DNA from: Actinocorallia populi
GTDB lineage: Bacteria > Actinomycetota > Actinomycetes > Streptosporangiales > Streptosporangiaceae
DNA length: 64,000 bases
Reading direction: 5' to 3'
Assembly (NCBI RefSeq): GCF_002995495.1
Contig: NZ_PVZV01000013.1
Coordinates: 89,612 to 153,611 of the forward strand
Position 1 is the stretch's first letter, and each line of letters begins with the position of its first letter. Position numbers and translations under genes: made by a program. The notes below the pieces were generated by a model. The model was not told the DNA's origin and did no database searches. It saw only the letters and a list, made by a program, of their open reading frames with translations. This document shows, piece by piece, positions 51,086 to 63,585 of the stretch.

Positions 51086-51793
51086 ATGATGTTTGACGGC
51101 ACACCTACGATCATCGGGCACCGCGGTTGCGGATCGGGCCCGGCGGAGAACACGCTGGAGTCCCTGCTGAGGGCGGTGGACCTGGGGCTGGGCTGGGTGG
51201 AGGTCGATGTCCAGCGGGCCGCGGACGACGGTCTCGTGGTGCGGCACGACTTCACCTCCGAGGACGGTTCCTTCCTCGTCGACGGGCCCTGCGAGGGCCT
51301 GCTGCGGATCGAGGAGGTGTTCGAGGCGCTGCCCGATCACGTCGGCGTCGACGTGGACGTCAAGACGGTGCTGGAGGACGCGCTGGACCCGCGCACCGCC
51401 CCCCTGCTGGAGCGGGTGCTGCGCAGGGAGGCGCGCCGCAGGCCGCTGGTGGTCACCTCGTTCGACCCGGCGCTGCTGCTGGCCCTGGCCGGGACGGGCG
51501 TCCCGCGCGGCCTGCTGACCTGGCTGTGGTTCCCCATCGGCCACGCCGTGGCCACCGCCGCGGGACTGGGCCTGCAGGCGGTGGCCCTGCACACCGGGTC
51601 CTGCGAGCCCAGCCCCAAGCAGCGCCCGTTCGCCGACTGCCTGGAGGTGGCGCACAAGGCGGGCCTGGAGGTCATGGTCTGGTGCCCGCAGCCCGGTGAC
51701 CTGCCGAAGTACCGGGCCGCCGACGCGGTGATCGTCGACGACGTCCCGGCCACGCTCACCGCGTGGGAGGAGATGGCGGCCGGGACGGGCTGA
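51086..51793 (+). CDS. Glycerophosphodiester phosphodiesterase family protein
   Basis: A 235-residue TIM-barrel GDPD without signal peptide. Active-site residues: His12 and Arg13 in IGHRGCG, Glu21 in PAENTLES, the paired acidic WVEVDVQ and RHD. It would hydrolyse glycerophosphodiesters to glycerol-3-phosphate, either from lipids or wall polymers. It is divergent from purK by 44 bases. Confidence 0.9.
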   Translation: MMFDGTPTIIGHRGCGSGPAENTLESLLRAVDLGLGWVEVDVQRAADDGLVVRHDFTSEDGSFLVDGPCEGLLRIEEVFEALPDHVGVDVDVKTVLEDALDPRTAPLLERVLRREARRRPLVVTSFDPALLLALAGTGVPRGLLTWLWFPIGHAVATAAGLGLQAVALHTGSCEPSPKQRPFADCLEVAHKAGLEVMVWCPQPGDLPKYRAADAVIVDDVPATLTAWEEMAAGTG

Positions 51794-53012: not shown

Positions 53013-54329
53013 GTGGTGAGACGGCTGACGGTCATCGGGACCGGCTACCTGGGCGCTACCCACGCGGCATGCATGGCCGAGCTCGGCTTCGAGGTCCTCG
53101 GCATCGACGTCCTGCCCGACAGGATCGAACGGCTGTCCGCCGGAGACCTCCCCTTCTACGAGCCCGGCCTGCCGGAGGTGCTGCGCCGCAACCTGGAGAA
53201 CGGCCGCCTGCGCTTCACCACCTCCTACGAGGAGATCGCCGAGTTCGGCGACGTGCACTTCGTGTGCGTGGGCACCCCGCAGAAAGCCGGCGAGTACGCC
53301 GCCGACGTCTCCCACGTCGACGCCGCGATCACCGCGCTCGCCCCGCTGCTGACCCGGGAGGCCCTGGTCGTCGGCAAGTCCACGGTCCCCGTCGGCACCG
53401 CCTCCCGGGTCGCGGACCTGCTGGCGCGGCTGGCCCCCGCACCCGGGGTGGAACTGGCCTGGAACCCCGAGTTCCTGCGCGAGGGCTACGCCGTCCAGGA
53501 CACCCTGCGCCCCGACCGGCTGGTGATCGGCGTGCGGTCCGAGCGCGCCGAGCGCGTCCTGCGCGAGGTCTACGCCCGCCAGCTCGCCGACGGCGTCCCG
53601 CTGGTGGTCACCGACTTCGCCACCTCGGAGCTGGTCAAGGTCTCGGCGAACGCCTTCCTGGCCACCAAGATCTCCTTCATCAACGCCATGGCCGAGGTCT
53701 GCGAGGCCACCGGCGCCGACGTCACCAAGCTCTCGCAGGCGCTGGCCCACGACGACCGCATCGGCGGCAGGTTCCTCGGCCCCGGCCTCGGCTTCGGCGG
53801 CGGCTGCCTGCCCAAGGACATCCGGGCGTTCATGGCCCGCGCCGGCGAGCTCGGCGTCGACCAGGCGCTGTCGTTCCTGCGCGAGGTCGACGCCATCAAC
53901 ATCCGCCGGCGGATGCGCATGATCGACCTGGCCCGCGACCTGCTCGGCGGATCGTTCCAGGGCCGCAGGGTCTGCGTGCTGGGCGCCGCGTTCAAGCCGA
54001 ACTCCGACGACGTGCGCGACTCGCCCGCCCTCGACGTCGCCGTCGGGATCCGCGACCAGGGCGGCGACGTCACCGTCTACGACCCGCAGGCCCTGGACAA
54101 CGCCCGCAAGGCCCAGCCGTCCCTCGGCTTCGGGGAGTCGGCCCTGGAGGCCGCGGCCCGGGCCGACGTCGTCCTGCTGCTCACCGAGTGGCGGGAGTTC
54201 CGCGACCTCGACCCCCGGGTGCTGGGCGCCCGGGTGCGGACGCGCAACATCGTGGACGGCAGGAACACCCTGGACCCCGAACGCTGGCGCGCCGCCGGCT
54301 GGACCTACAAGGCGCTGGGCCGCCCCTGA
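53013..54329 (+). CDS. ugd: UDP-glucose/GDP-mannose dehydrogenase family protein
   Basis: A 438-residue UDP-glucose 6-dehydrogenase-type enzyme making UDP-glucuronate. NAD loop TVIGTGYLGATHAACM, VCVGTPQKAGEYA, STVPVGTA, substrate region KVSANAFLATKISFINAMAE, catalytic Cys in GFGGGCLPKD (about C265), and the C-terminal domain LGAAFKPNSDDVRDSPALDV. GTG at 53013 has GGGAGG six bases upstream. It starts the envelope polymer region. Confidence 0.93.
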   Translation: MVRRLTVIGTGYLGATHAACMAELGFEVLGIDVLPDRIERLSAGDLPFYEPGLPEVLRRNLENGRLRFTTSYEEIAEFGDVHFVCVGTPQKAGEYAADVSHVDAAITALAPLLTREALVVGKSTVPVGTASRVADLLARLAPAPGVELAWNPEFLREGYAVQDTLRPDRLVIGVRSERAERVLREVYARQLADGVPLVVTDFATSELVKVSANAFLATKISFINAMAEVCEATGADVTKLSQALAHDDRIGGRFLGPGLGFGGGCLPKDIRAFMARAGELGVDQALSFLREVDAINIRRRMRMIDLARDLLGGSFQGRRVCVLGAAFKPNSDDVRDSPALDVAVGIRDQGGDVTVYDPQALDNARKAQPSLGFGESALEAAARADVVLLLTEWREFRDLDPRVLGARVRTRNIVDGRNTLDPERWRAAGWTYKALGRP

Positions 54330-54339
54330 CGCGGGGCGC

Positions 54340-55359
54340 TCACCGGTCCTTGGTGAGACCCAGGCCGGGCGGGCTGGTCAGGAAGCCCAGGCCCCAGGAG
54401 ATGTGCATGGTCGCGTAGACGAACGGCAGGCAGAGCCTGGCCTTCCAGGGCAGCTCCTCGCCGGTCAGCAGGGTGCCGCCCACCGGGATCGCCAGGAAGT
54501 AGCCGACCGGCAGGATCCAGCCCGGCCAGAAGCCCGCCAGCCCGGCGACGGTGCCCACCAGGATCCCGGCGACCGCCAGCGGCGGGGCCAGGTAGCGCAG
54601 GTTCAGCGTGCCCTGGTGCTCGCGGCCCACCACCCGCCGCCAGCGGCCGGTGTAGAAGAACTGCTTGGCCAGCTGCTTGAGGTCGGGCCGGGGCCGGTAG
54701 GTGACCCGCATCGCCGGGGTGAACCAGATCCGTCCGCCGGTCTGGCGGATCCGGTGGTTCATCTCCCAGTCCTGGGCCCGCACGAACGTCTCGTCGTAGC
54801 CGCCGACCCGCTCCAGCGCGCTGCGCCGGAACGTGCCCAGGTAGACCGTCTCCACCTCGCCGGCCTCGCCGCCGGTGTGGAAGCGGGCGTTGCCGACGCC
54901 GAACTTCGACGTCATCGCCCGCGCCACCGCCTTCTCGAACGGGGTGACGCCCTCGGCCGCCATCAGCCCGCCCACGTTGTCGGCGCCGTGGGCCTCCATG
55001 GTCTGCACCGCGACCCGGATGTAGTCGGCGGGCAGCAGGGAGTGCCCGTCCACCCGGACGATGATGGAGTACTGGGACGCCTTGATCGCGATGTTCAGCC
55101 CGTTGGGGGTGCGCCCCGTGGGGTTGCGCGCGAGGATGACCCGCGGATCGCGCTCGGCCAGGCGGCGGGCGATCTGCTCGGTCCGGTCCTTGGACGGGCC
55201 GAGGGCGAGCACGAGTTCGAGCTCACCCGGGTAGTCCTGCGCCATGATGCGGTTCACCGCGTCCTCGAGGTGGCGTTCCTCGTTGAGAACGGGCATGACG
55301 ACGGATACGGCCGGCCAGGTGGTGCGCGGCTCGCCGTCAGCGTGGAGAGACTGATTCAT
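54340..55359 (-). CDS. Family 2 glycosyltransferase with membrane tail
   Basis: A 339-residue GT2 enzyme. The GT-A fold holds VSVVMPVLNEERHLE, the Asp of IIVRVDGHSLLP, GGYDETFVRAQDWEMNHR and a C-terminal set of helices (LAVAGILVGTVAGLAGFW and more). This resembles ExoA-like succinoglycan transferases. ATG at 55359 is the best start. It is divergent from the LCP gene, consistent with polymer synthesis. Confidence 0.88.
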   Translation of the reverse strand: MNQSLHADGEPRTTWPAVSVVMPVLNEERHLEDAVNRIMAQDYPGELELVLALGPSKDRTEQIARRLAERDPRVILARNPTGRTPNGLNIAIKASQYSIIVRVDGHSLLPADYIRVAVQTMEAHGADNVGGLMAAEGVTPFEKAVARAMTSKFGVGNARFHTGGEAGEVETVYLGTFRRSALERVGGYDETFVRAQDWEMNHRIRQTGGRIWFTPAMRVTYRPRPDLKQLAKQFFYTGRWRRVVGREHQGTLNLRYLAPPLAVAGILVGTVAGLAGFWPGWILPVGYFLAIPVGGTLLTGEELPWKARLCLPFVYATMHISWGLGFLTSPPGLGLTKDR

Positions 55360-55448: not shown

Positions 55449-57023
55449 ATGGCCGGGGACGACGACCCGATCGAGCAGTACTTCCGCCCCAGACCTGCGG
55501 GGGCGGAGGGTCCGGGAGGGCCCGTGGCCGACGACAGCGGCAGCTGGGACGCCGTCGCCGTCGACAGCGAACGCGCGCCGAAGGTGAAGCTCGACCCGCC
55601 GCGCGGCCGCCGCAGGGCGGGCGGCCCAGGCTCGGCCCGCGAGGCCGTGCGCCGCCGCCGCAACCTGCTGGCGACCGCCTCCGTCTCCGCCGTGGTGCTG
55701 TTCGCCTCCGGCACCGCCTGGGGCTTCCAGGAGTTCCTCAAGGACAAGATCCAGACCATCGACATCGAGCTGCCCCAGGGCTCCGGGCCGCGCGGCGCGA
55801 TGAACATCCTGCTCGCCGGGGTGGACAAGCGCGACGGCATGAGCGAGGCGGACATCAAGCGGCTGCACCTGGGCCGCGAGGCCGGGGCGCGCTCGGACAC
55901 GATGATGCTGATGCACGTCTCCGAGGACCGCGACAAGGTGACGGTGGTCAGCCTCCCGCGCGACACCCTGGTGACCATCCCCGCCCACAAGAGCACCCAG
56001 GGGCGCCGGGTCGCCTCCCAGCAGGGCAAGCTCACCTGGGCGTACTCCTACGGCGGCGCCCAGCTGATGAAGGACACCGTCGAGGCGCACACCGGGCTGG
56101 TCATCGACCACTACGTCGAGGTCAACTTCCTGGGCTTCCTCAAGGTCGTCGACGCCGTCGGCGGGGTGGAGGTCTGCACCGAGCAGCCCATCGACGACCG
56201 CGCCAGCGGCCTGAAGCTCAGTCCCGGCAAGCACCACGTGGACGGCGCGACCGCGCTGGCCTACGCCCGGGTCCGGCACGGCCTCGGCGAGGACATCGGG
56301 CGCATGCAGCGCCAGCAGGCGTTCGTCTCGTCCCTGCTGCGCCAGTCGCTGGCCAAGGTCAAGGACCCGGTGCGGGGCACCAGGGTGCTGTCCGCGATGC
56401 TGGGGGCCGTCCGGGTGGACGAGGGCCTGAAGAAGCACTCCACCGAGCTTGCCGACCAGTTCAAGGACCTGTCGCTGGACGACGTGAAGTTCGTGAAGGT
56501 GCCGCTGAAGGACCCGGCGGGCACCGCGCTGCTCGGCGGGATCAACCAGTCCGTGGTCCTGTGGGACGAGGGCGAGGCCCGCAGCATGTTCCGCAAGATC
56601 GACCGGGACGAGCCGCTGGTGGAGCCGAAGCCCGCACCGGCCGCCACCGAGAAGCCGCTGACCGTCCCGCCGGAGCAGATCGACGTCCGGGTGCGCAACG
56701 GCACCGGCGTCACCGGCGTGGCCAAGAAGGCCAGCGCCGGGCTGACCGCCGCCGGCTTCCGCGCCCCCTGGGTGACCGGCGTCGTGCAGCGCCGCGACAT
56801 CAAGCCCACGCTCATCCGCTACGGCCCGTCCCGCGCCGACTCGGCCCGCACCCTCGCGGCGTCGATCCCGTTCGCCGAGCTGCAGAAGGTCGACGCGCTG
56901 GGAAGCGGGATCGAGGTCGTGGTGGGCAGCGACTGGGCCAGGCCGAAGAAGGTCGAGACCGCCGCCGAGGCCAAGGAGCCCGACTACGAGACCAGGACCG
57001 CTACGCAGAACCTGTGCGGGTAG
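55449..57023 (+). CDS. LytR-CpsA-Psr (LCP) family wall polymer ligase
   Basis: A 524-residue membrane protein that transfers polymers from polyprenyl carriers to peptidoglycan. A cytoplasmic head leads to one helix (ATASVSAVVLFASGTAWGF). The LCP domain includes NILLAGVDKRD, GARSDTMMLMHV, VVSLPRDTLVTIP, YVEVNFLGFLKVVDAVGGVE and YARVRHGLGEDIGRMQRQQ. A LytR_C domain (IDVRVRNGTGVTGVAKKASA) is near 420-500. ATG at 55449 has GAAGGGG eight bases upstream. M. tuberculosis Rv3267 is the syntenic LCP gene. Confidence 0.93.
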   Translation: MAGDDDPIEQYFRPRPAGAEGPGGPVADDSGSWDAVAVDSERAPKVKLDPPRGRRRAGGPGSAREAVRRRRNLLATASVSAVVLFASGTAWGFQEFLKDKIQTIDIELPQGSGPRGAMNILLAGVDKRDGMSEADIKRLHLGREAGARSDTMMLMHVSEDRDKVTVVSLPRDTLVTIPAHKSTQGRRVASQQGKLTWAYSYGGAQLMKDTVEAHTGLVIDHYVEVNFLGFLKVVDAVGGVEVCTEQPIDDRASGLKLSPGKHHVDGATALAYARVRHGLGEDIGRMQRQQAFVSSLLRQSLAKVKDPVRGTRVLSAMLGAVRVDEGLKKHSTELADQFKDLSLDDVKFVKVPLKDPAGTALLGGINQSVVLWDEGEARSMFRKIDRDEPLVEPKPAPAATEKPLTVPPEQIDVRVRNGTGVTGVAKKASAGLTAAGFRAPWVTGVVQRRDIKPTLIRYGPSRADSARTLAASIPFAELQKVDALGSGIEVVVGSDWARPKKVETAAEAKEPDYETRTATQNLCG

Positions 57024-57702
57024 CCGCCAGGTGCTCGGCCAGCACCAGGTCGAGGGGGTGGGTGACCTTGAGCAGCCGCTCGTCGCCCGCCACCACCCGG
57101 ATGGGCACCTGCGGCAGGTAGCGGTGCACCACGCCGCAGTCGTCGGTGGCGACGAACTCCGGGTCCTTCAGCGCCAGCTCGTAGGCCGCGCGCAGGGTGC
57201 CGAGCCGGAACCCCTGGGGGGTCTGGAACCGCGCCAGGCTCGGCCGCGGCGGCATGTCGCGGACCAGCTCCCCCGAGACGGACACCACGGTGTCGGTGAC
57301 GGGCAGCGCCACCGCGACGGACTCGTGGGTCCGCAGCCCCGCCAGGCAGCGGTCCAGCACGTCGTGCTCGACGAACGCGCGGGCGGCGTCGTGGAACAGG
57401 ACGCGCGCGTCGTCCGGCTCGCCGCCCATCGCCTCCATCGCCCGGAGCGTGGAGGCGGTGCGGGTCTCGCCGCCCTCGACGACCTCCACCCGGCCGCCGT
57501 ACGGGGCGGCGATCTCCTCGGCCGCCGCCACGTGGCCCGGCGCCATGATGAGGACGACCCGGTCCAGAAGCCGCGATGTCGCGAAGGTCTCCACCGGGTA
57601 GGCCAGCAGCGGACGCCCGCCGACCTCGATCAACTGCTTCGGCCGGCCCGCGCCGACCCGCAGGCCGACGCCCCCGGCGAGGATCACACCGGCTGTTTTC
57701 AC
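57001..57702 (-). CDS. IspD/TarI-like cytidylyltransferase (orphan)
   Basis: A 233-residue nucleotidyltransferase. It contains AGVILAGGVGLRVGAGRPKQ, GGETRTASTLRAMEAM, FHDAARAFVEHDVLD, RFQTPQGFR and LKVTHPLDLVLAE, the IspD pattern, with Pro of DAARP changed to Ala. GTG at 57702 has GGAGG about eight bases upstream. It may make CDP-methylerythritol or, as TarI/Bcs1 do, CDP-ribitol or another CDP-polyol. No ispF or carD neighbour is seen; the neighbours are polymer genes. Overlaps the LCP gene end by 23 bases. Confidence 0.8.
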   Translation of the reverse strand: MKTAGVILAGGVGLRVGAGRPKQLIEVGGRPLLAYPVETFATSRLLDRVVLIMAPGHVAAAEEIAAPYGGRVEVVEGGETRTASTLRAMEAMGGEPDDARVLFHDAARAFVEHDVLDRCLAGLRTHESVAVALPVTDTVVSVSGELVRDMPPRPSLARFQTPQGFRLGTLRAAYELALKDPEFVATDDCGVVHRYLPQVPIRVVAGDERLLKVTHPLDLVLAEHLAATRTGSA

Positions 57703-57780
57703 CTGGTACTCCTCCGTTCCCCGTCCGTACACCCACTAGGCTGAGGGCTTTGATCTGACCTGCTGTGTTGGAGGCCGCGA

Positions 57781-59361
57781 GTGACGTTCGTGGTGCTGGC
57801 CACCGAGCCAGGCGACCCGACAGCCGAGCTCGCGTATGACGACCGGGTGACCGTGCTCGGCCGGCTGCTGGAGCAGCTGGCGGCACACAACGTATCGGAC
57901 GTGCGCGTCGTCGCCCGGCCCGAGGCGGCCTCGGTGCTGCGCAAGAACGGCCGCAAAGTGATCGAGTCGCCGGACCTGGCGACCGACCTGTTCGAGATCG
58001 GGAAACTGGCGCGCGCGGCGGGGGAGGTCTACCTCGCGCACGCCGACCTGGTGATCAGCGAAGAGCTGCTGATCCGCCTGCTGCGCGACAAGACCACCAC
58101 GGCGGTCACCGCCAAGCAGCCGGTGACCGGCACCCGGCCGGCCGTCCGCATCGCCCGCCGGCGGGTGGTCTCGGCCGGCTCGCCCTTCCACCAGGTCACC
58201 GACCCGGGCGGGGTGTTCCGCGGCGCGCTCAAGGTCGTCGACACCCGCCTGCTCGCCGAGCTGTGCGACCGGCTGACCATGCTGGTGGACCTGCTGCCGA
58301 AGGTGGACGTGCCGGTCCGCCAGCTCGGCCGCCGCTCCGCCGACGGGCTCGAGGTGTTCGTCGACAACGAGGCGCGCGACGAGTTCGACCGCGCCGTCGC
58401 GCAGGACCCCGTGCTGGCCGCCACCGCCCCGCGCGGCGACGACGCCGCGGGCCTCCTGCTGGTCGCCCTGGCCCGCGCGGGGACGCCGGTCGCCGCCCGC
58501 AACGTCGACGTCCTGGTCTGCGAGCGCGTCCTCGCCCCCGAGCAGGCCGCGGCCGCCCGCCGGGCCGTCGAGGCCGTCGACGAGGACCGGGTCAGGCTGG
58601 ACACGGCGGTGAAGTCCAACGACGGCTTCTTCACCACGTACTTCGTCAGCAGCTACTCCAAGTACCTCGCCCGCTGGGCGGCGCGGATGCGGCTCACCCC
58701 CAACATGGTGACCTGCATCTCCATGGCGATCGCCGCGGTCGCCGCCCTGTGGTTCGCCGACGGCACCCGCACGGGCCTGGTCACCGGCGGGATCCTGCTG
58801 TACTTCGCCTTCGTCTTCGACTGCGTGGACGGCCAGGTCGCCCGCTACACCCGCCAGTTCTCCACGCTGGGCGCCTGGCTGGACGCCACCTTCGACCGGG
58901 CCAAGGAGTACCTGGCCTACGCCGGCCTGGCCGTCGGCTACAGCGCCGCGGGCCTCGGCGACGTCTGGGGCCTGGCCTGCGCCGTGATCATCCTGCAGAC
59001 CTGCCGCCACATGGTCGACTTCAGCTTCGCCGTCCACAAGGGCGCGGCGCCGCCGGCGCCGATCAAGGAGCTCCCGCTGGACGTCCCCGACGACAGCCTG
59101 CTCGACCCGCCCGCACGGCAGCCCGCGCGCCGCGGCGGCCTGGGCATGCTGGCCGTGCGGGCGAGCGCCGCGCTGGAGCGCGTCCCCGGCGCCCGCTGGG
59201 CCAAGAAGATCATCATCCTGCCGATCGGCGAGCGCTTCGCCCTCATCGCCCTGACCGCGGCGTTCTTCGACGCCCGCGTCACGTTCCTGGCCCTGCTGGC
59301 CTGGGGCGGCCTCGCCGCCGCCTACACCCTCTCCGGCCGTGTTCTGAGGTCCCTGGCATGA
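57781..59361 (+). CDS. CDP-alcohol phosphotransferase with N-terminal nucleotidyltransferase-like domain
   Basis: A 526-residue protein. Residues 1-~250 form an alpha/beta domain with sugar-nucleotidyltransferase-like layout (AYDDRVTVLGRLLEQLAAHN, VYLAHADLVIS) but no GGxGxR loop, so probably non-catalytic. The second half is a polytopic CDP-alcohol phosphotransferase with a full motif, D-CV-DG-QV-AR-(8)-G-AWL-D-ATF-D. This resembles inositol-phosphate cytidylyltransferase/DIPP-synthase fusions. GGAGG sits about seven bases ahead of the GTG. It begins a coupled operon. Confidence 0.87.
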   Translation: MTFVVLATEPGDPTAELAYDDRVTVLGRLLEQLAAHNVSDVRVVARPEAASVLRKNGRKVIESPDLATDLFEIGKLARAAGEVYLAHADLVISEELLIRLLRDKTTTAVTAKQPVTGTRPAVRIARRRVVSAGSPFHQVTDPGGVFRGALKVVDTRLLAELCDRLTMLVDLLPKVDVPVRQLGRRSADGLEVFVDNEARDEFDRAVAQDPVLAATAPRGDDAAGLLLVALARAGTPVAARNVDVLVCERVLAPEQAAAARRAVEAVDEDRVRLDTAVKSNDGFFTTYFVSSYSKYLARWAARMRLTPNMVTCISMAIAAVAALWFADGTRTGLVTGGILLYFAFVFDCVDGQVARYTRQFSTLGAWLDATFDRAKEYLAYAGLAVGYSAAGLGDVWGLACAVIILQTCRHMVDFSFAVHKGAAPPAPIKELPLDVPDDSLLDPPARQPARRGGLGMLAVRASAALERVPGARWAKKIIILPIGERFALIALTAAFFDARVTFLALLAWGGLAAAYTLSGRVLRSLA

Positions 59362-60002
59362 CCGTCGTCGACACCCAAGCGCGCGCCGCGGCGCGCACCG
59401 CGCAGCAGCTCGCCTACCGCGACGACGGGCCGGTCTCCCGAGCCCTCGGCGGCCTGGCCCGCGGGCGCCTGGCACCGCTGGCGCCGACCCTGGTCGTCGG
59501 CGCGCTGTCGGTCCTCATGCTGGTCGTGGGCGCCCGGACGGGCGATCTGCCGGCGCTGCTGGCGCCCGCCGTCCTGCTGACCCTGCTGGTCGGCCCCACC
59601 TCGGCGCACCCGCACGGCGGCAGGCTCGACTGGCTCGTCCCCCCGGCGATCAGGGGCATCGAGTATGGTTACCTCGCTGTGCTCGGGTTCAGCCAGGGGG
59701 TCTCGCGCCCGCTGGTCTACACGCTGCTCGCGGTGCTGGTCTACCACCACTACGACACCGTCTACCGGACCCGCCAGGGACTGTGGCCGCCCGACTGGGT
59801 GTACCGGGCCGGACTCGGCTGGGACGGCCGGATGCTGGTCGCCGCGGGAGCCGCGGCGGCCGGGTTCGCCACCCCCGCCTACGCCGTCCTCGCGCTTTAT
59901 CTGGGCGTGCTGTTCGGGTGGGAGAGTGTCCGCACCTGGCTGGAGACGGAGCGCGGCAGCACAGGTGCCGAAGTTGATCTTGAAGAGGAGGCCGGCGCAT
60001 GA
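59358..60002 (+). CDS. DUF5941-like membrane protein
   Basis: A 214-residue polytopic protein with helices near 44-62, 68-84, 98-115 and 152-188 (LLAVLVYHHYDTVYRTR is a conserved-looking stretch, as is WPPDWVYRAGLG). The ATG overlaps the previous stop and its own stop overlaps the next ATG, both by ATGA. In other actinobacteria a comparable domain may be attached to the phosphotransferase in one chain. Function unknown, likely accessory to it. Confidence 0.75.
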   Translation: MTVVDTQARAAARTAQQLAYRDDGPVSRALGGLARGRLAPLAPTLVVGALSVLMLVVGARTGDLPALLAPAVLLTLLVGPTSAHPHGGRLDWLVPPAIRGIEYGYLAVLGFSQGVSRPLVYTLLAVLVYHHYDTVYRTRQGLWPPDWVYRAGLGWDGRMLVAAGAAAAGFATPAYAVLALYLGVLFGWESVRTWLETERGSTGAEVDLEEEAGA

Positions 60003-60739
60003 TCGGCATGATTCTGGCGGCCGGCGCGGGACGCCGACTCCGCCCGTACACCGACACCCTGCCCAAGGCGCTGGTGCCGGTCGATGGTGAGACCACCATC
60101 ATGGACATCTCGCTGCGCAACCTCGCCGCGGCGGGGCTGGACGAGGTCGTCATCGTCGTGGGCTACTGCGCGGGCGCCGTCGAGGAGCGCAAGGCGGCCC
60201 TGGAGGAGAAGTACGGCGTGCGCATCACGCTCGTGCACAACGACAAGGCCGAGGAGTGGAACAACGCCTACTCCATGTGGCTGGCCCGCGAGCACTTCGC
60301 CAAGGGCGTCCTCATGGTGAACGGCGACACGGTCCACCCGGTCTCCGTCGAGAAGACGCTGCTGGCGGCCCGCGACCCCGAGAAGGCCTCCATCCTCCTG
60401 GCGGTCGACGACGTCAAGAAGCTCGCCGACGAGGAGATGAAGGTGATCCTCTCGCCCGAGGGCACCCTCCAGCGCATCACCAAGCTCATGGACCCGTCCG
60501 AGGCCGCCGGCGAGTACATCGGCGCGACCCTGCTGGAGCCGGCCGCCGCCGAGGCGCTGGCCGACGCGCTCCGGGCCACCTTCGAGAAGGACCCCGACCT
60601 CTACTACGAGGACGGCTACCAGGAGTACGTCAACCGGGGCGGCACCATCGCCGTCGCGCCCATCGGCGAGGTCTCCTGGGTCGAAGTGGACAACCACGAC
60701 GACCTCGAGAAGGCCAGGGAGATCGCGTGCCGCTACTGA
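59999..60739 (+). CDS. NTP-transferase family nucleotidyltransferase (phosphocholine cytidylyltransferase-like)
   Basis: A 246-residue enzyme. The signature LAAGAGRRLRPYTDTLPKAL VPV (in part) opens the Rossmann fold; then VVIVVGYCAGAVEERKAAL, NNAYSMWLAREHFA, MVNGDTVHPVSV with the metal Asp, and EVSWVEVDNHDDLEKAREI at the end. These fit sugar- or alcohol-phosphate nucleotidyltransferases of the LicC type. In the operon it would activate a phospho-alcohol for the CDP-alcohol transferases. Confidence 0.88.
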   Translation: MIGMILAAGAGRRLRPYTDTLPKALVPVDGETTIMDISLRNLAAAGLDEVVIVVGYCAGAVEERKAALEEKYGVRITLVHNDKAEEWNNAYSMWLAREHFAKGVLMVNGDTVHPVSVEKTLLAARDPEKASILLAVDDVKKLADEEMKVILSPEGTLQRITKLMDPSEAAGEYIGATLLEPAAAEALADALRATFEKDPDLYYEDGYQEYVNRGGTIAVAPIGEVSWVEVDNHDDLEKAREIACRY

Positions 60740-61800
60740 CGCGGATGCTGACCGCGCCGCTGTCGATCGACGTGCGGCGCGGCGCGATCGCGTCCCTCGG
60801 CGAGCTGCTGGCCGACCGGCGGATCGCCACCGAGGGACGCGTGGCCGTCGCGGTCGGTCCCGGCCAGGGCGACGTCATCGCCGAGCACGTGCGGCCCACG
60901 CTCGCCGAGTGCGAGGTCTTCCGGGTGCCGGGCGGCACCGTCGACGCCGCCGTCGAGCTGGGCGGCCGGCTGCGCGGCGGCTCCTACGAGGCGGTCGTCG
61001 CGATCGGCGGCGGCAAGACCATCGACGCCACCAAGTACGCCGCGACCCTCGCGGGCATCCCGATGGTGTCGGTCGCCACGAACCTGTCGCACGACGGCAT
61101 CTGCTCCCCGGTCGCCTCCCTGGAGCACGACAAGGGCAAGGGCTCCTTCGGCGTCGTCATGCCGATCGCCATGATCGTCGACCTGGACTACGTGCGGGCC
61201 GCCCCCGAGGGCCTGGTGCGCTCGGGCGTCGGCGACGTCGTCAGCAACCTGTCGGCGGTCGCCGACTGGGAGCTGGCGCACGCCGAGACCGGCGAGCCCA
61301 TCGACCGGCTCGCGCTGACCGTCGCGCGCACCGCCGCCGAGGCGCTGATCCACCAGCCCGCCTCGATCGAGTCCGACGCCTTCCTGACCGTGCTGGCCGA
61401 GGGCCTGGTGCTCTCGGGCATGGCGATGTCGTTCGCGGGCTCCTCCCAGCCGGCCAGCGGCGGCGACCACGAGATCCTGCACGCGATCGACCGGCTCTTC
61501 CCCGGCACCGGCAACCACGGCGAGCTCGCCGGGCTCGGCGCCCTGTTCTGCCACTTCCTGCGCCGGGAGTACCTCGGCGAGGAGCCGCGGCGGGCGCAGA
61601 TCGTCGCGGACTGCCTGAGCCGGCACCGGCTGCCGCTCGTCCCCGGGGACGTCGGCCTCAACGCCGAGCAGTTCGCCCAGGCCGTCGCCTTCGCGCCCTC
61701 CACCCGGCCGGGCCGCTACACCGTCCTGGAGTACCTCAACCTGGACGAGGCGAAGATCCGCACCGCGGTGGGCAAGTACCTACAGGAGTTCGGTAGCTGA
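60727..61800 (+). CDS. sn-Glycerol-1-phosphate dehydrogenase-like iron/zinc alcohol dehydrogenase
   Basis: A 357-residue enzyme of the G1PDH/AraM group. NAD loop AIGGGKTIDATKYAA, then SVATNLSHDGICSPVASL, the archaeal-type G1PDH signature, and metal-binding His in GGDHEILHAID and GTGNHGELAG. Known members reduce dihydroxyacetone phosphate to sn-glycerol-1-phosphate, the stereoisomer of archaeal lipids. GTG at 60727 (GGGAG six bases upstream) overlaps the previous gene by 13 bases; ATG 60745 is the alternative. It likely supplies the phosphopolyol for the cytidylyltransferase. Confidence 0.88.
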   Translation: MPLLTRMLTAPLSIDVRRGAIASLGELLADRRIATEGRVAVAVGPGQGDVIAEHVRPTLAECEVFRVPGGTVDAAVELGGRLRGGSYEAVVAIGGGKTIDATKYAATLAGIPMVSVATNLSHDGICSPVASLEHDKGKGSFGVVMPIAMIVDLDYVRAAPEGLVRSGVGDVVSNLSAVADWELAHAETGEPIDRLALTVARTAAEALIHQPASIESDAFLTVLAEGLVLSGMAMSFAGSSQPASGGDHEILHAIDRLFPGTGNHGELAGLGALFCHFLRREYLGEEPRRAQIVADCLSRHRLPLVPGDVGLNAEQFAQAVAFAPSTRPGRYTVLEYLNLDEAKIRTAVGKYLQEFGS

Positions 61801-61801
61801 G

Positions 61802-62704
61802 ATGCCCCCCAGGAACTACAGCCTCAAGGAGATCCGGGAGAAGGGCCAGCCCCCCGGCCTGAAGGACCGCCGCAACGAGGAGCACTGGGCCGGACGGCTC
61901 TACGCCCGCTCGTTGTCGCCGTTCCTGACCTGGATCTCGCTGCGGGCCGGGCTCTCGCCCAACCAGCTGACCTACCTGATGATCCTCTCCGGGCTCGGCG
62001 CCGGCGTGGTGTTCGCCTGGGGCACCGGCCTGGTCAGCGCGATCGTCGGCGCGCTCCTCGTCCAGCTCTACCTGGTGCTGGACTGCACGGACGGCGAGGT
62101 CGCCCGGGTCACCGGCCGCACCTCCATCACCGGCGTCTACCTGGACCGGCTCGGCCACTACTTCTCCGAGGTCGCCGTCGTCATCGGCCTCGGCTTCCGC
62201 GCGGAGAAGCAGTTCGACCTCCCCTGGGGCCAGGGCGGCTGGATCATGCTCGGCCTGCTCGGCGCGCTCGGCGTGGCGCTGATCAAGGCCGAGACCGACA
62301 ACGTCGTGGTGGCCCGCGCCAAGTCGGGGCTGCCCGCCGACCCGCCCGGGGGAGACCGCGCGCTGCGGCCCACCTCGACCTGGCTGGCGCTGGCCCGACA
62401 GGCGGCGTCCCTGCTGAAGTTCCACCGCATCATCGGCGCCGTCGAACTGTCGCTGCTGATCCTCGCGGCCGCGGTGCTGGACCGCGTGTTCGACCTGCCC
62501 GTTCCCGCGGGTGAGGGGAATTTCGGGTGGTTCTCCTACTCGCCGCTCGACGAGGCGGCGTTCAAGCCAGGACTCGGGGGTTACTTCGGGTCGCCGGTCG
62601 AATGGTCGGTGACGAGGGGACTGCTGGTGGCCGTCGCGGCCGTCGCCGTTCTGCAGACGGTTCTGCACTTCGTGAGCATCGTCGCCTCGCGGCGGCTGAA
62701 GTAG
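61802..62704 (+). CDS. CDP-alcohol phosphotransferase with altered catalytic motif
   Basis: A 300-residue polytopic enzyme of the CDP-alcohol phosphatidyltransferase family. The motif reads D-CT-DG-EV-AR-(8)-G-VYL-D-RLG-H: the last Asp, proposed catalytic base, is His. About six helices follow FLTWISLRAGLSPNQLTYLMI. It may transfer a phosphopolyol to a lipid or sugar acceptor, or be specialised. It follows the dehydrogenase by one base and precedes the glycosyltransferase by eleven. Confidence 0.86.
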   Translation: MPPRNYSLKEIREKGQPPGLKDRRNEEHWAGRLYARSLSPFLTWISLRAGLSPNQLTYLMILSGLGAGVVFAWGTGLVSAIVGALLVQLYLVLDCTDGEVARVTGRTSITGVYLDRLGHYFSEVAVVIGLGFRAEKQFDLPWGQGGWIMLGLLGALGVALIKAETDNVVVARAKSGLPADPPGGDRALRPTSTWLALARQAASLLKFHRIIGAVELSLLILAAAVLDRVFDLPVPAGEGNFGWFSYSPLDEAAFKPGLGGYFGSPVEWSVTRGLLVAVAAVAVLQTVLHFVSIVASRRLK

Positions 62705-62715
62705 AAGAGGTTTTC

Positions 62716-63585
62716 GTGAAGCTCTCGGTCGTGGTCCTGACGATGGGGAACCGCCCGGTCGAGCTGGACCGTGCGCTGCGCAGCGCGCTGAACCAGAAGG
62801 ACGTGGACGTCGAGGTCGTCATCGTCGGCAACGGCGTGCGCGGCGACTGGACTCCGCCGGTGGAGGACGCTCGCATCCGGACGCTGCTGCTGCCCGAGAA
62901 CATCGGCGTCCCCGCCGGACGCAACCGGGGCGTGCAGGAGACGACCGGCGACATCGTGATCTTCCTGGACGACGACGGGCACTACCCGTCGCTGGAACTG
63001 GGCAAGCGGCTCCAGTCGATGTTCGAGGCGGACCCGGGGCTCGGCATCGTGTCCTTCCAGATCAAGGACCCGGACGGCGGCCCCGGCCAGCGCCGCCACG
63101 TGCCGCGGCTGCGCGCGGGCGACCCCGGCAGGTCCTCGCCCGCCACGACGTTCCTCGGCGGGGCGAGCGCGGTCCGCCGCGCGGCCTTCGACGCGGGCGG
63201 CGGCCTGCCGGAGAACTTCTTCTTCGCCCATGAGGAGACCGACCTCGCCTGGCAGGTGCTGAACGCCGGCTACCGCATCGTCTACGACGCGGAGTCCGTG
63301 ATGTGCCACCCGCCGACCCTGGCGACGAGGCACGCGTCCTTCTACCGGTACAACGCGCGCAACCGGGTGTGGCTGGCCAAGCGGAACCTGCCCTGGCCGA
63401 TCGCGGTGGTTTACCTCGCCGACTGGGTGGGCATCACGGTCCTACGCGAACGTAAGATGGACGCTCTGAAGCCCTGGTTCAAGGGCTTCGTTGAAGGTTG
63501 CCGTAACGACGCGGGGCCACGTCGGCCCATCAGCTGGCGGACGGCCTGGCGGATGACCCGTACCGGGCGCCCGCCGATCGTCTGA
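62716..63585 (+). CDS. Family 2 glycosyltransferase
   Basis: A 289-residue GT2 enzyme, WbbL-like. Motifs: KLSVVVLTMGNRPVELDRAL, IFLDDDGHYPS (DxD-like), TFLGGASAVRRAAF, FFFAHEETDLAWQVLNAG and YNARNRVWLAKRNLPWP. GTG at 62716 with AGAGG upstream gives the correct N-terminus, although the frame stays open earlier. No transmembrane tail, so it acts at the cytoplasmic face. It closes the phosphopolyol operon. Confidence 0.9.
   Translation: MKLSVVVLTMGNRPVELDRALRSALNQKDVDVEVVIVGNGVRGDWTPPVEDARIRTLLLPENIGVPAGRNRGVQETTGDIVIFLDDDGHYPSLELGKRLQSMFEADPGLGIVSFQIKDPDGGPGQRRHVPRLRAGDPGRSSPATTFLGGASAVRRAAFDAGGGLPENFFFAHEETDLAWQVLNAGYRIVYDAESVMCHPPTLATRHASFYRYNARNRVWLAKRNLPWPIAVVYLADWVGITVLRERKMDALKPWFKGFVEGCRNDAGPRRPISWRTAWRMTRTGRPPIV

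What the first reader, a model, noticed from the sequence alone, without database searches (positions are those of the whole stretch)
57001..63585. Candidate glycerol-1-phosphate-based envelope polymer pathway
A tightly coupled operon joins an sn-glycerol-1-phosphate-dehydrogenase-like enzyme, an NTP-transferase, two CDP-alcohol phosphotransferases, a DUF5941-like membrane protein and a GT2. An orphan IspD/TarI-like cytidylyltransferase diverges from it, and an LCP ligase, UDP-glucose dehydrogenase and second GT2 lie next to that. Together they could make the archaeal-type stereoisomer G1P (or a similar phosphopolyol), activate it with CTP, pass it to an acceptor and ligate a glycopolymer to the wall. 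No PcrB/GGGP synthase is present, so the Bacillus AraM lipid route is not the obvious explanation. I do not know a described pathway with this gene set.
Basis: partly seen in the sequence, partly recalled or inferred. Interest (0 to 1): 0.78.

Follow-up and report, generated by a model that had tools for sequence, protein, structure and literature searches.

The report
Mirror-image glycerol route to teichoic acid
Many actinomycete bacteria share a conserved gene set that is predicted to activate the archaeal-type mirror-image glycerol phosphate and would feed it into wall polymers (teichoic acids), in genomes where the usual activating enzyme, TagD, was not detected.

Summary
Six tightly packed genes (57781-63585: CDP-alcohol phosphotransferase CDP1, DUF5941, LicC-type nucleotidyltransferase NTP, G1P-dehydrogenase-like enzyme, second phosphotransferase CDP2, GT2) lie beside an IspD-family gene, an LCP ligase and another GT2, in a probable Actinocorallia genome. 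NTP is next to the G1PDH gene in 101 of 104 loci examined. In 197 class genomes the G1PDH ortholog occurs in 47; 45 of these have a TagF-type polymerase, none has detectable TagD, and PcrB was found in none of the 197. Outside the window's own family the pair often sits beside a TagGH/Wzm-Wzt-type exporter or TagF. Best reading: the pair likely makes CDP-glycerol from sn-glycerol-1-phosphate, replacing TagD in teichoic-acid synthesis; the CDP-alcohol phosphotransferases may prime the lipid acceptor. DUF5941 is predicted to have a degenerate CDP-alcohol-phosphotransferase fold, and CDP2 has His or Ala for the catalytic-base Asp. The IspD-like gene is the only strong IspD in the genome, so it may simply serve isoprenoid synthesis. 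No activity or stereochemistry is tested, and phylogenetic clumping weakens the co-occurrence statistics. The Streptomyces gene block was noted in print in 2026 without a mechanism in the passages read.

The parts
57781..59361 (+). CDP1: residues 1-266 predicted nucleotidyltransferase fold without the GxGxR signature (57781-58578), residues 283-526 CDP-alcohol phosphotransferase with all four motif Asp (58627-59358)
59358..60002 (+). DUF5941: predicted degenerate CDP-alcohol-phosphotransferase fold, possible partner of CDP1 (fused to it in Streptomyces-like genomes)
59999..60739 (+). NTP: LicC/IPCT-type nucleotidyltransferase, predicted CTP:glycerol-1-phosphate cytidylyltransferase
   Evidence: PF00483; LicC 1jyk 64.9 bits, IPCT 4jd0 43.8; GxGxR in 86 of 86
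60745..61800 (+). G1PDH-like enzyme, predicted sn-glycerol-1-phosphate dehydrogenase
   Evidence: PF13685 111.6 bits; archaeal G1PDH chains 215 and 190 bits with the family profile; D164, H242, H258 invariant in 24 rows
61802..62704 (+). CDP2: CDP-alcohol phosphotransferase with the fourth motif Asp replaced by His (residue 119)
   Evidence: PF01066 31 bits; 79 His, 7 Ala, 1 Asp in 87 best hits; profile match to CDP1 99%
62716..63585 (+). GT2b: family 2 glycosyltransferase, conserved end of the block
   Evidence: PF00535 59.5 bits; near G1PDH in 80 of 80 named loci
57001..57702 (-). IspD-family cytidylyltransferase, divergent neighbour; probably serves the MEP pathway, polymer role not excluded
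   Evidence: PF01128 169.1 bits; TIGR00453 177.8 against cut-off 181.3; only strong match in the genome
55449..57023 (+). LCP (LytR-CpsA-Psr) ligase, conserved neighbour
   Evidence: PF03816 169.1 bits; near G1PDH in 71 of 80 named loci
54340..55359 (-). GT2a: family 2 glycosyltransferase, conserved neighbour
   Evidence: PF00535 74.9 bits; near G1PDH in 71 of 80 named loci

Best explanation
The operon encodes a G1P-dehydrogenase-like enzyme next to a LicC-type nucleotidyltransferase, and the two are predicted to make CDP-glycerol from sn-glycerol-1-phosphate and would supply it to teichoic-acid synthesis in place of TagD, which was not detected in this genome. Inferred steps: (1) the G1PDH-like enzyme likely reduces DHAP to sn-glycerol-1-phosphate; (2) NTP likely couples it to CTP, giving CDP-1-glycerol; (3) CDP1 (intact motif, probably working with the degenerate-fold partner DUF5941) and CDP2 probably transfer glycerol-1-phosphate to a sugar-bearing lipid acceptor prepared by the GT2 enzymes, a TagB-like priming step; (4) TagF-type polymerases encoded elsewhere in the genome would elongate; (5) a TagGH/Wzm-Wzt-type exporter, adjacent in many relatives, would move the chain out; (6) LCP would ligate it to the wall. 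The calls show gene content, conservation, co-occurrence, motifs and predicted folds. No activity and no stereochemistry is shown.
For: NTP lies within 400 bp of G1PDH on the same strand in 101 of 104 loci. G1PDH ortholog in 47 of 197 class genomes; 45 of the 47 have TagF against 30 of the other 150; G1PDH and TagD never coincide; of 75 TagF genomes 45 have G1PDH only, 7 TagD only, 0 both, 23 neither. Own genome: three TagF-type matches, no TagD over cut-off (best 35.8 against 165.4 bits), no TagA/WecG at E 1e-10. TagGH or a TagF-like gene within 10 kb of G1PDH in 4 of 4 f5 loci and 10 of 16 loci of the other class families outside f1. CDP1-DUF5941 also sits in TagF/exporter clusters that lack a nearby G1PDH (L136, L137). 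Dehydrogenase profile fits archaeal G1PDH chains far better than most glycerol dehydrogenases. NTP resembles LicC and IPCT, which use CTP and alcohol phosphates. PcrB in 0 of 197. In vitro, some cytidylyltransferases accept Gro1P and a TagF-like polymerase uses CDP-1-glycerol (PMC8262930, passages).
Against: No chemistry. The dehydrogenase is below the NCBIfam equivalog cut-off (230.1 against 413), and the best single PDB match, 3ce9, is named glycerol dehydrogenase. Co-occurrence is clumped by family, so the Fisher p of 8.6e-22 is not a fair probability. 23 TagF genomes have neither G1PDH nor TagD, so other donors exist. 2 of 47 G1PDH genomes lack a TagF match. TagGH/TagF neighbours occur in only 19 of 80 named loci of the window's own family and 0 of 2 f9 loci; the own TagF genes are on another contig or about 125 kb away. 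A TagD/TagF route does not need CDP-alcohol phosphotransferases. 13 of 47 G1PDH genomes do have TagA/WecG. CpgD, a related cytidylyltransferase, did not use glycerol-1-phosphate (PMC12275187, passage). I recall that S. coelicolor's main wall polymers are not polyglycerolphosphate.
Confidence: 0.55

Rival explanations
1. The same kind of wall-polymer pathway, but with another polyol: the dehydrogenase reduces a different ketose phosphate or dihydroxyacetone, and NTP makes a CDP-alditol other than CDP-1-glycerol.
For: Equivalog cut-off for G1PDH not met; best PDB match is a chain named glycerol dehydrogenase (3ce9); actinomycete walls are recalled to contain ribitol and other polyol phosphates; IspD-SDR fusions with a polyol-reductase look sit at the same place in Streptosporangiaceae.
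Against: Closer to archaeal G1PDH than to the other glycerol dehydrogenase chains, with presumed metal ligands invariant.
Confidence: 0.2
2. The block makes a phospholipid or a small soluble phosphodiester (as DIPP synthase and PIP synthase do) rather than a wall polymer: CDP1 and CDP2 join CDP-glycerol or CDP-diacylglycerol to a polyol phosphate.
For: CDP1 is built like AF2299 and IPCT-DIPPS; CDP2 and CDP1 score weakly with archaetidylinositol- and phosphatidylinositol-phosphate synthase models; CDP-alcohol phosphotransferases have known lipid substrates.
Against: Recurrent exporter, TagF and LCP neighbours and the TagF co-occurrence point to a polymer.
Confidence: 0.12
3. Archaeal-type ether lipid synthesis through G1P and PcrB/GGGP synthase, as in Bacillus.
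For: PMC6431249 (passages) reports species of Streptomyces with all three archaeal lipid genes and suggests archaeal-like lipids in Actinobacteria.
Against: PF01884 (PcrB) found in 0 of 197 class genomes at E 1e-5, own genome and 15 f5 genomes included, while 5 of 14 control genomes ring; this conflicts with that paper for the sample used here.
Confidence: 0.03

Closest known systems
Bacillus subtilis TagD/TagB/TagF/TagGH wall teichoic acid pathway
   Same: CDP-glycerol donor (predicted here), TagF-type polymerases, TagH-like exporter in relatives, LCP ligase
   Different: sn-glycerol-1-phosphate predicted instead of sn-3 (PMC7086022, passages); no TagD detected; no TagA in the own genome; CDP-alcohol phosphotransferases present
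AraM-PcrB G1P pathway of Bacillus
   Same: G1P-dehydrogenase family enzyme
   Different: no PcrB in 197 genomes; coupled to a cytidylyltransferase-like gene instead
IPCT-DIPPS and AF2299 (Archaeoglobus)
   Same: nucleotidyltransferase domain plus CDP-alcohol phosphotransferase
   Different: in CDP1 the nucleotidyltransferase signature is lost (0 of 42); a separate intact NTP and a degenerate DUF5941 are present
CDP-2-glycerol pathway of Streptococcus pneumoniae (recalled, no call)
   Same: reductase plus cytidylyltransferase giving an unusual CDP-glycerol isomer for a surface polymer
   Different: different isomer, a separate phosphotransferase step, no G1PDH
Streptomyces synteny block of PMC13118837 (passage)
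   Same: araM, tagG, tagH, CDP-alcohol phosphotransferase, GT2, nucleotidyltransferase, crtB, as in the Streptomyces-like loci L130-L133
   Different: the passage lists the synteny as teichoic-acid associated, without a pathway, stereochemistry or TagD comparison

Membership tests
sn-glycerol-1-phosphate dehydrogenase (EgsA/AraM) | Sequence family: closer to G1PDH than to glycerol dehydrogenase | tested here: met
   PF13685 111.6 bits; profile 215 and 190 bits to archaeal G1PDH chains, 125 to G1PDH chain 9h4x, 78 or less to other glycerol dehydrogenases; 3ce9 (223 bits) is named glycerol dehydrogenase
sn-glycerol-1-phosphate dehydrogenase (EgsA/AraM) | Curated equivalog cut-off PRK00843 | tested here: not met
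   230.1 bits against 413
sn-glycerol-1-phosphate dehydrogenase (EgsA/AraM) | Metal-binding Asp and two His | tested here: met
   D164, H242, H258 invariant in 24 aligned rows and conserved in archaeal chains; which residues are ligands is recalled
sn-glycerol-1-phosphate dehydrogenase (EgsA/AraM) | Reduces DHAP to sn-glycerol-1-phosphate | not testable with these tools
   no assay
LicC/IPCT-type cytidylyltransferase | Intact GxGxR signature and family similarity | tested here: met
   86 of 86; LicC 64.9, IPCT 43.8 bits
LicC/IPCT-type cytidylyltransferase | Uses CTP and an alcohol phosphate | not testable with these tools
   no assay
CDP-alcohol phosphotransferase | Four-Asp motif in CDP1 | tested here: met
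   window CDP1 has all four; of 78 best hits 59 have Asp at D4, 5 are CDP2 itself, 1 Gly, 13 give no motif
CDP-alcohol phosphotransferase | Four-Asp motif in CDP2 | tested here: not met
   D1-D3 kept, D4 is His 79, Ala 7, Asp 1 of 87
CDP-alcohol phosphotransferase | Four-Asp motif in DUF5941 | tested here: not met
   fold similar but no motif in the TM2-TM3 stretch 79-104; the position match is my inference from helix order
Classical TagD-type wall teichoic acid pathway | TagD (TIGR01518) | tested here: not met
   own genome best 35.8 bits, cut-off 165.4
Classical TagD-type wall teichoic acid pathway | TagF-type polymerase (PF04464) | tested here: met
   three matches in own genome, elsewhere than the window
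Classical TagD-type wall teichoic acid pathway | TagA (PF03808) | tested here: not met
   own genome none at E 1e-10
Classical TagD-type wall teichoic acid pathway | TagGH exporter in the own genome | not tested
   contig ends after GT2b; seen in relatives only
AraM-PcrB ether lipid pathway | PcrB/GGGP synthase | tested here: not met
   0 of 197 genomes
IspD (MEP pathway) | IspD family match | tested here: met
   PF01128 169.1 bits; best PDB match an IspD, 106.8 bits, against 91.7 for a ribitol-5-phosphate cytidylyltransferase
IspD (MEP pathway) | Curated equivalog cut-off TIGR00453 | tested here: not met
   177.8 against 181.3 bits

The most novel reading that the evidence does not exclude
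Actinomycetes build their teichoic acids from a cytosolic CDP-sn-1-glycerol pool, the mirror image of the Bacillus donor. One shared machine, with CDP-alcohol phosphotransferases (an active unit with a dead-fold DUF5941 partner, and a His-variant second unit) as primases onto lipid acceptors, makes both the wall-linked and the lipid-linked polymer, which would account for polyglycerolphosphate lipoteichoic acid in bacteria reported to lack LtaS.
Probability: 0.3. Interest if true: 0.88.

Novelty: new variant of a known kind. Interest (0 to 1): 0.72.

Why it matters
Bacillus wall teichoic acid is made of sn-glycerol-3-phosphate activated by TagD. [quoted passage not shown] A CDP-1-glycerol route would bring an 'archaeal' stereoisomer into bacterial wall chemistry, give actinobacterial G1PDHs a job other than ether lipids, and make testable how Streptomyces and relatives supply polyglycerolphosphate for wall and lipoteichoic acids. 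That question is stated in PMC3196553 (Discussion section read: no clear LtaS, wall and lipoteichoic acid alike in structure, shared pathway proposed). It also gives DUF5941 a first structural identity, as far as the one search for that name shows (0 papers).

Tried and rejected

Rows dropped before counts: for alignments and motif counts ORFs were kept by length and coverage. L136 and L137 were left out because they lack G1PDH. Of 15 G1PDH-positive f5 genomes four loci were examined (L130-L133); all 16 positive class genomes outside f1 and f5 were examined (L143-L158); two more f1 loci (L159, L160) and two from other classes of the phylum (L134, L135, from the DUF5941 search) complete the 24 added to the 80 named loci. 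The 80 are the best of 131 relatives. In one search IspD matches were counted from the printed list, which is cut below about 46 bits.
Full report
What is there. Six forward genes overlap by 4 bp or are 1 to 11 bp apart: CDP1 57781-59361, DUF5941 59358-60002, NTP 59999-60739, G1PDH-like 60745-61800, CDP2 61802-62704, GT2b 62716-63585. Diverging from CDP1 is an IspD-family gene (57001-57702), then LCP (55449-57023), GT2a (54340-55359, minus) and UDP-glucose dehydrogenase (53013-54329). The window's end is the end of contig C13 of an 8.25-Mb, 25-contig genome. The closest named relatives of the dehydrogenase are from Actinocorallia (93% and 88% identity), so the source is probably an Actinocorallia species (inferred).

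Conservation. Eighty loci of named Actinomadura, Actinoallomurus, Thermomonospora and Streptosporangiaceae relatives, the best of 131 found, keep the block. Within 10 kb of G1PDH, CDP2 and GT2b occur in 80 of 80, LCP and GT2a in 71 of 80 each, CDP1 in 64 and DUF5941 in 71; NTP is within 400 bp in 79 of 80. Five loci (L013, L014, L025, L040, L041) gave no CDP1 and no DUF5941 although NTP-G1PDH-CDP2-GT2b is intact, so those two look dispensable. Over all 104 loci examined, from ten families, NTP is within 400 bp on the same strand in 101; of the three exceptions L048 and L148 are at contig ends and L152 (f96) has no NTP there. NTP-G1PDH is the constant pair.

Company the pair keeps. In Streptomyces-like genomes (named so by inference) CDP1 and DUF5941 are one fused protein, in a block with NTP, G1PDH, CDP2, GT2b, an ABC-2 permease, an ATPase and a squalene/phytoene-synthase gene. 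PMC13118837 (passage) describes such a Streptomyces block with tagG, tagH, araM and crtB and calls clusters in it teichoic-acid associated. In other families the pair often sits directly beside a TagGH-like exporter, TagF-like genes, LCP and GT2a. TagG plus TagH, or a TagF-like gene, lies within 10 kb in 4 of 4 f5 loci and 10 of the 16 loci of the other class families outside f1, but in only 19 of 80 named loci of the window's own family, 0 of 2 f9 loci and neither of the two loci from other classes (L134 has a TagG-like match, L135 has LCP and GT2a). The two TagH-like ATPases scanned score below their equivalog cut-offs and nearly as well with galactan Wzt. Several of the TagF-like genes match PF04464 only weakly and in part. 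L136 (CDP1-DUF5941-NTP-TagF-like, exporter) and L137 (CDP1-DUF5941 fusion beside a GT2-TagF protein and exporter) have no G1PDH within the fetched stretch and still show CDP1-DUF5941 in teichoic-acid-like clusters.

Who lacks what. In one sample of 197 class genomes I counted G1PDH orthologs (E 1e-20 or better) in 47, TagD (E 1e-20) in 14, TagF (E 1e-10) in 75. G1PDH and TagF coincide in 45 of 47, against TagF in 30 of the 150 without G1PDH (Fisher p 8.6e-22); G1PDH and TagD coincide in none; among the 75 TagF genomes 45 have G1PDH only, 7 TagD only, 0 both, 23 neither. These tests ignore phylogeny: G1PDH is in eight families, and TagD in four others. PcrB was found in 0 of 197 (5 of 14 controls ring), which conflicts with PMC6431249 (passages), where Streptomyces species are said to hold all three archaeal lipid genes. 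TagA/WecG is present in 13 of 47 G1PDH genomes and not in the own genome. The own genome has three TagF-type matches, two of them GT2-TagF proteins by Pfam, on another contig or about 125 kb away, and no TagD over cut-off; its two weak TagD hits look HldE- and RfaE2-like (read by eye).

The IspD-like gene. It is the only strong IspD match of the genome; the other, weak one looks like GlmU. IspF follows a CarD-like gene (read by eye) with no IspD between, whereas three genomes of another family have CarD-IspD-IspF. Of 121 genomes of the order, 100 have exactly one match over 100 bits. In all 16 family genomes of the class sample an IspD match lies within 6 kb of G1PDH (coordinates, compared by hand; G019's is split). 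In Streptosporangiaceae that IspD is often fused to a short-chain dehydrogenase (26 of 106 collected rows). It may serve isoprenoid synthesis, a polyol, or both.

How it most likely works, and limits. DHAP to sn-glycerol-1-phosphate, to CDP-1-glycerol, to a lipid-linked acceptor through the CDP-alcohol phosphotransferases, elongation by TagF, export, LCP ligation: every chemical step is inferred. In vitro precedents: cytidylyltransferases that accept G1P and a TagF-like polymerase (Cps7D) that uses CDP-1-glycerol, while Cps3D does not from the pure isomer (PMC8262930, passages). Against: CpgD does not use G1P (PMC12275187, passage). Bacillus wall and lipoteichoic acids are enantiomers, sn-3 and sn-1 (PMC7086022, passages). 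Streptomyces hygroscopicus lipoteichoic acid resembles its wall polymer, and Actinobacteria are reported to lack clear LtaS orthologs (PMC3196553, Discussion section read). I recall that S. coelicolor's main wall polymers are not polyglycerolphosphate, which counts against a main-chain role in that species.

Novelty. The parts are of known families and the Streptomyces synteny is in print. The CDP-1-glycerol/TagD-replacement reading, the DUF5941 fold and the CDP2 variant were not found in the searches made, which cover open-licence PMC papers only.

Noticed in passing
L057:5102-6511(-) and other Streptosporangiaceae loci: IspD fused to a short-chain dehydrogenase (Bcs1-like architecture, name recalled) sits where the window has a single-domain IspD, and in several genomes of the order it is the only IspD match over 100 bits; it may be an IspD with a second job.
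   Followed up: partly
window 51086-51793: A GDPD (glycerophosphodiester phosphodiesterase) family gene lies about 5 kb before the block; a GDPD gene lies beside IspD in Thermomonosporaceae loci such as L006, L010 and L035 (cluster of 25 loci).
   Followed up: partly
G019:C9:52872-53529: The only IspD match of this genome is split into two pieces, perhaps a frameshift or assembly error.
   Followed up: no
L012, L022, L024, L027, L029, L045: CDP1 gave no intact motif in these Actinomadura loci; it may be decayed or divergent there.
   Followed up: no
L130-L133: In Streptomyces-like genomes the block directly precedes a squalene/phytoene-synthase gene that I recall as the start of the hopanoid cluster; no functional link was tested.
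   Followed up: no
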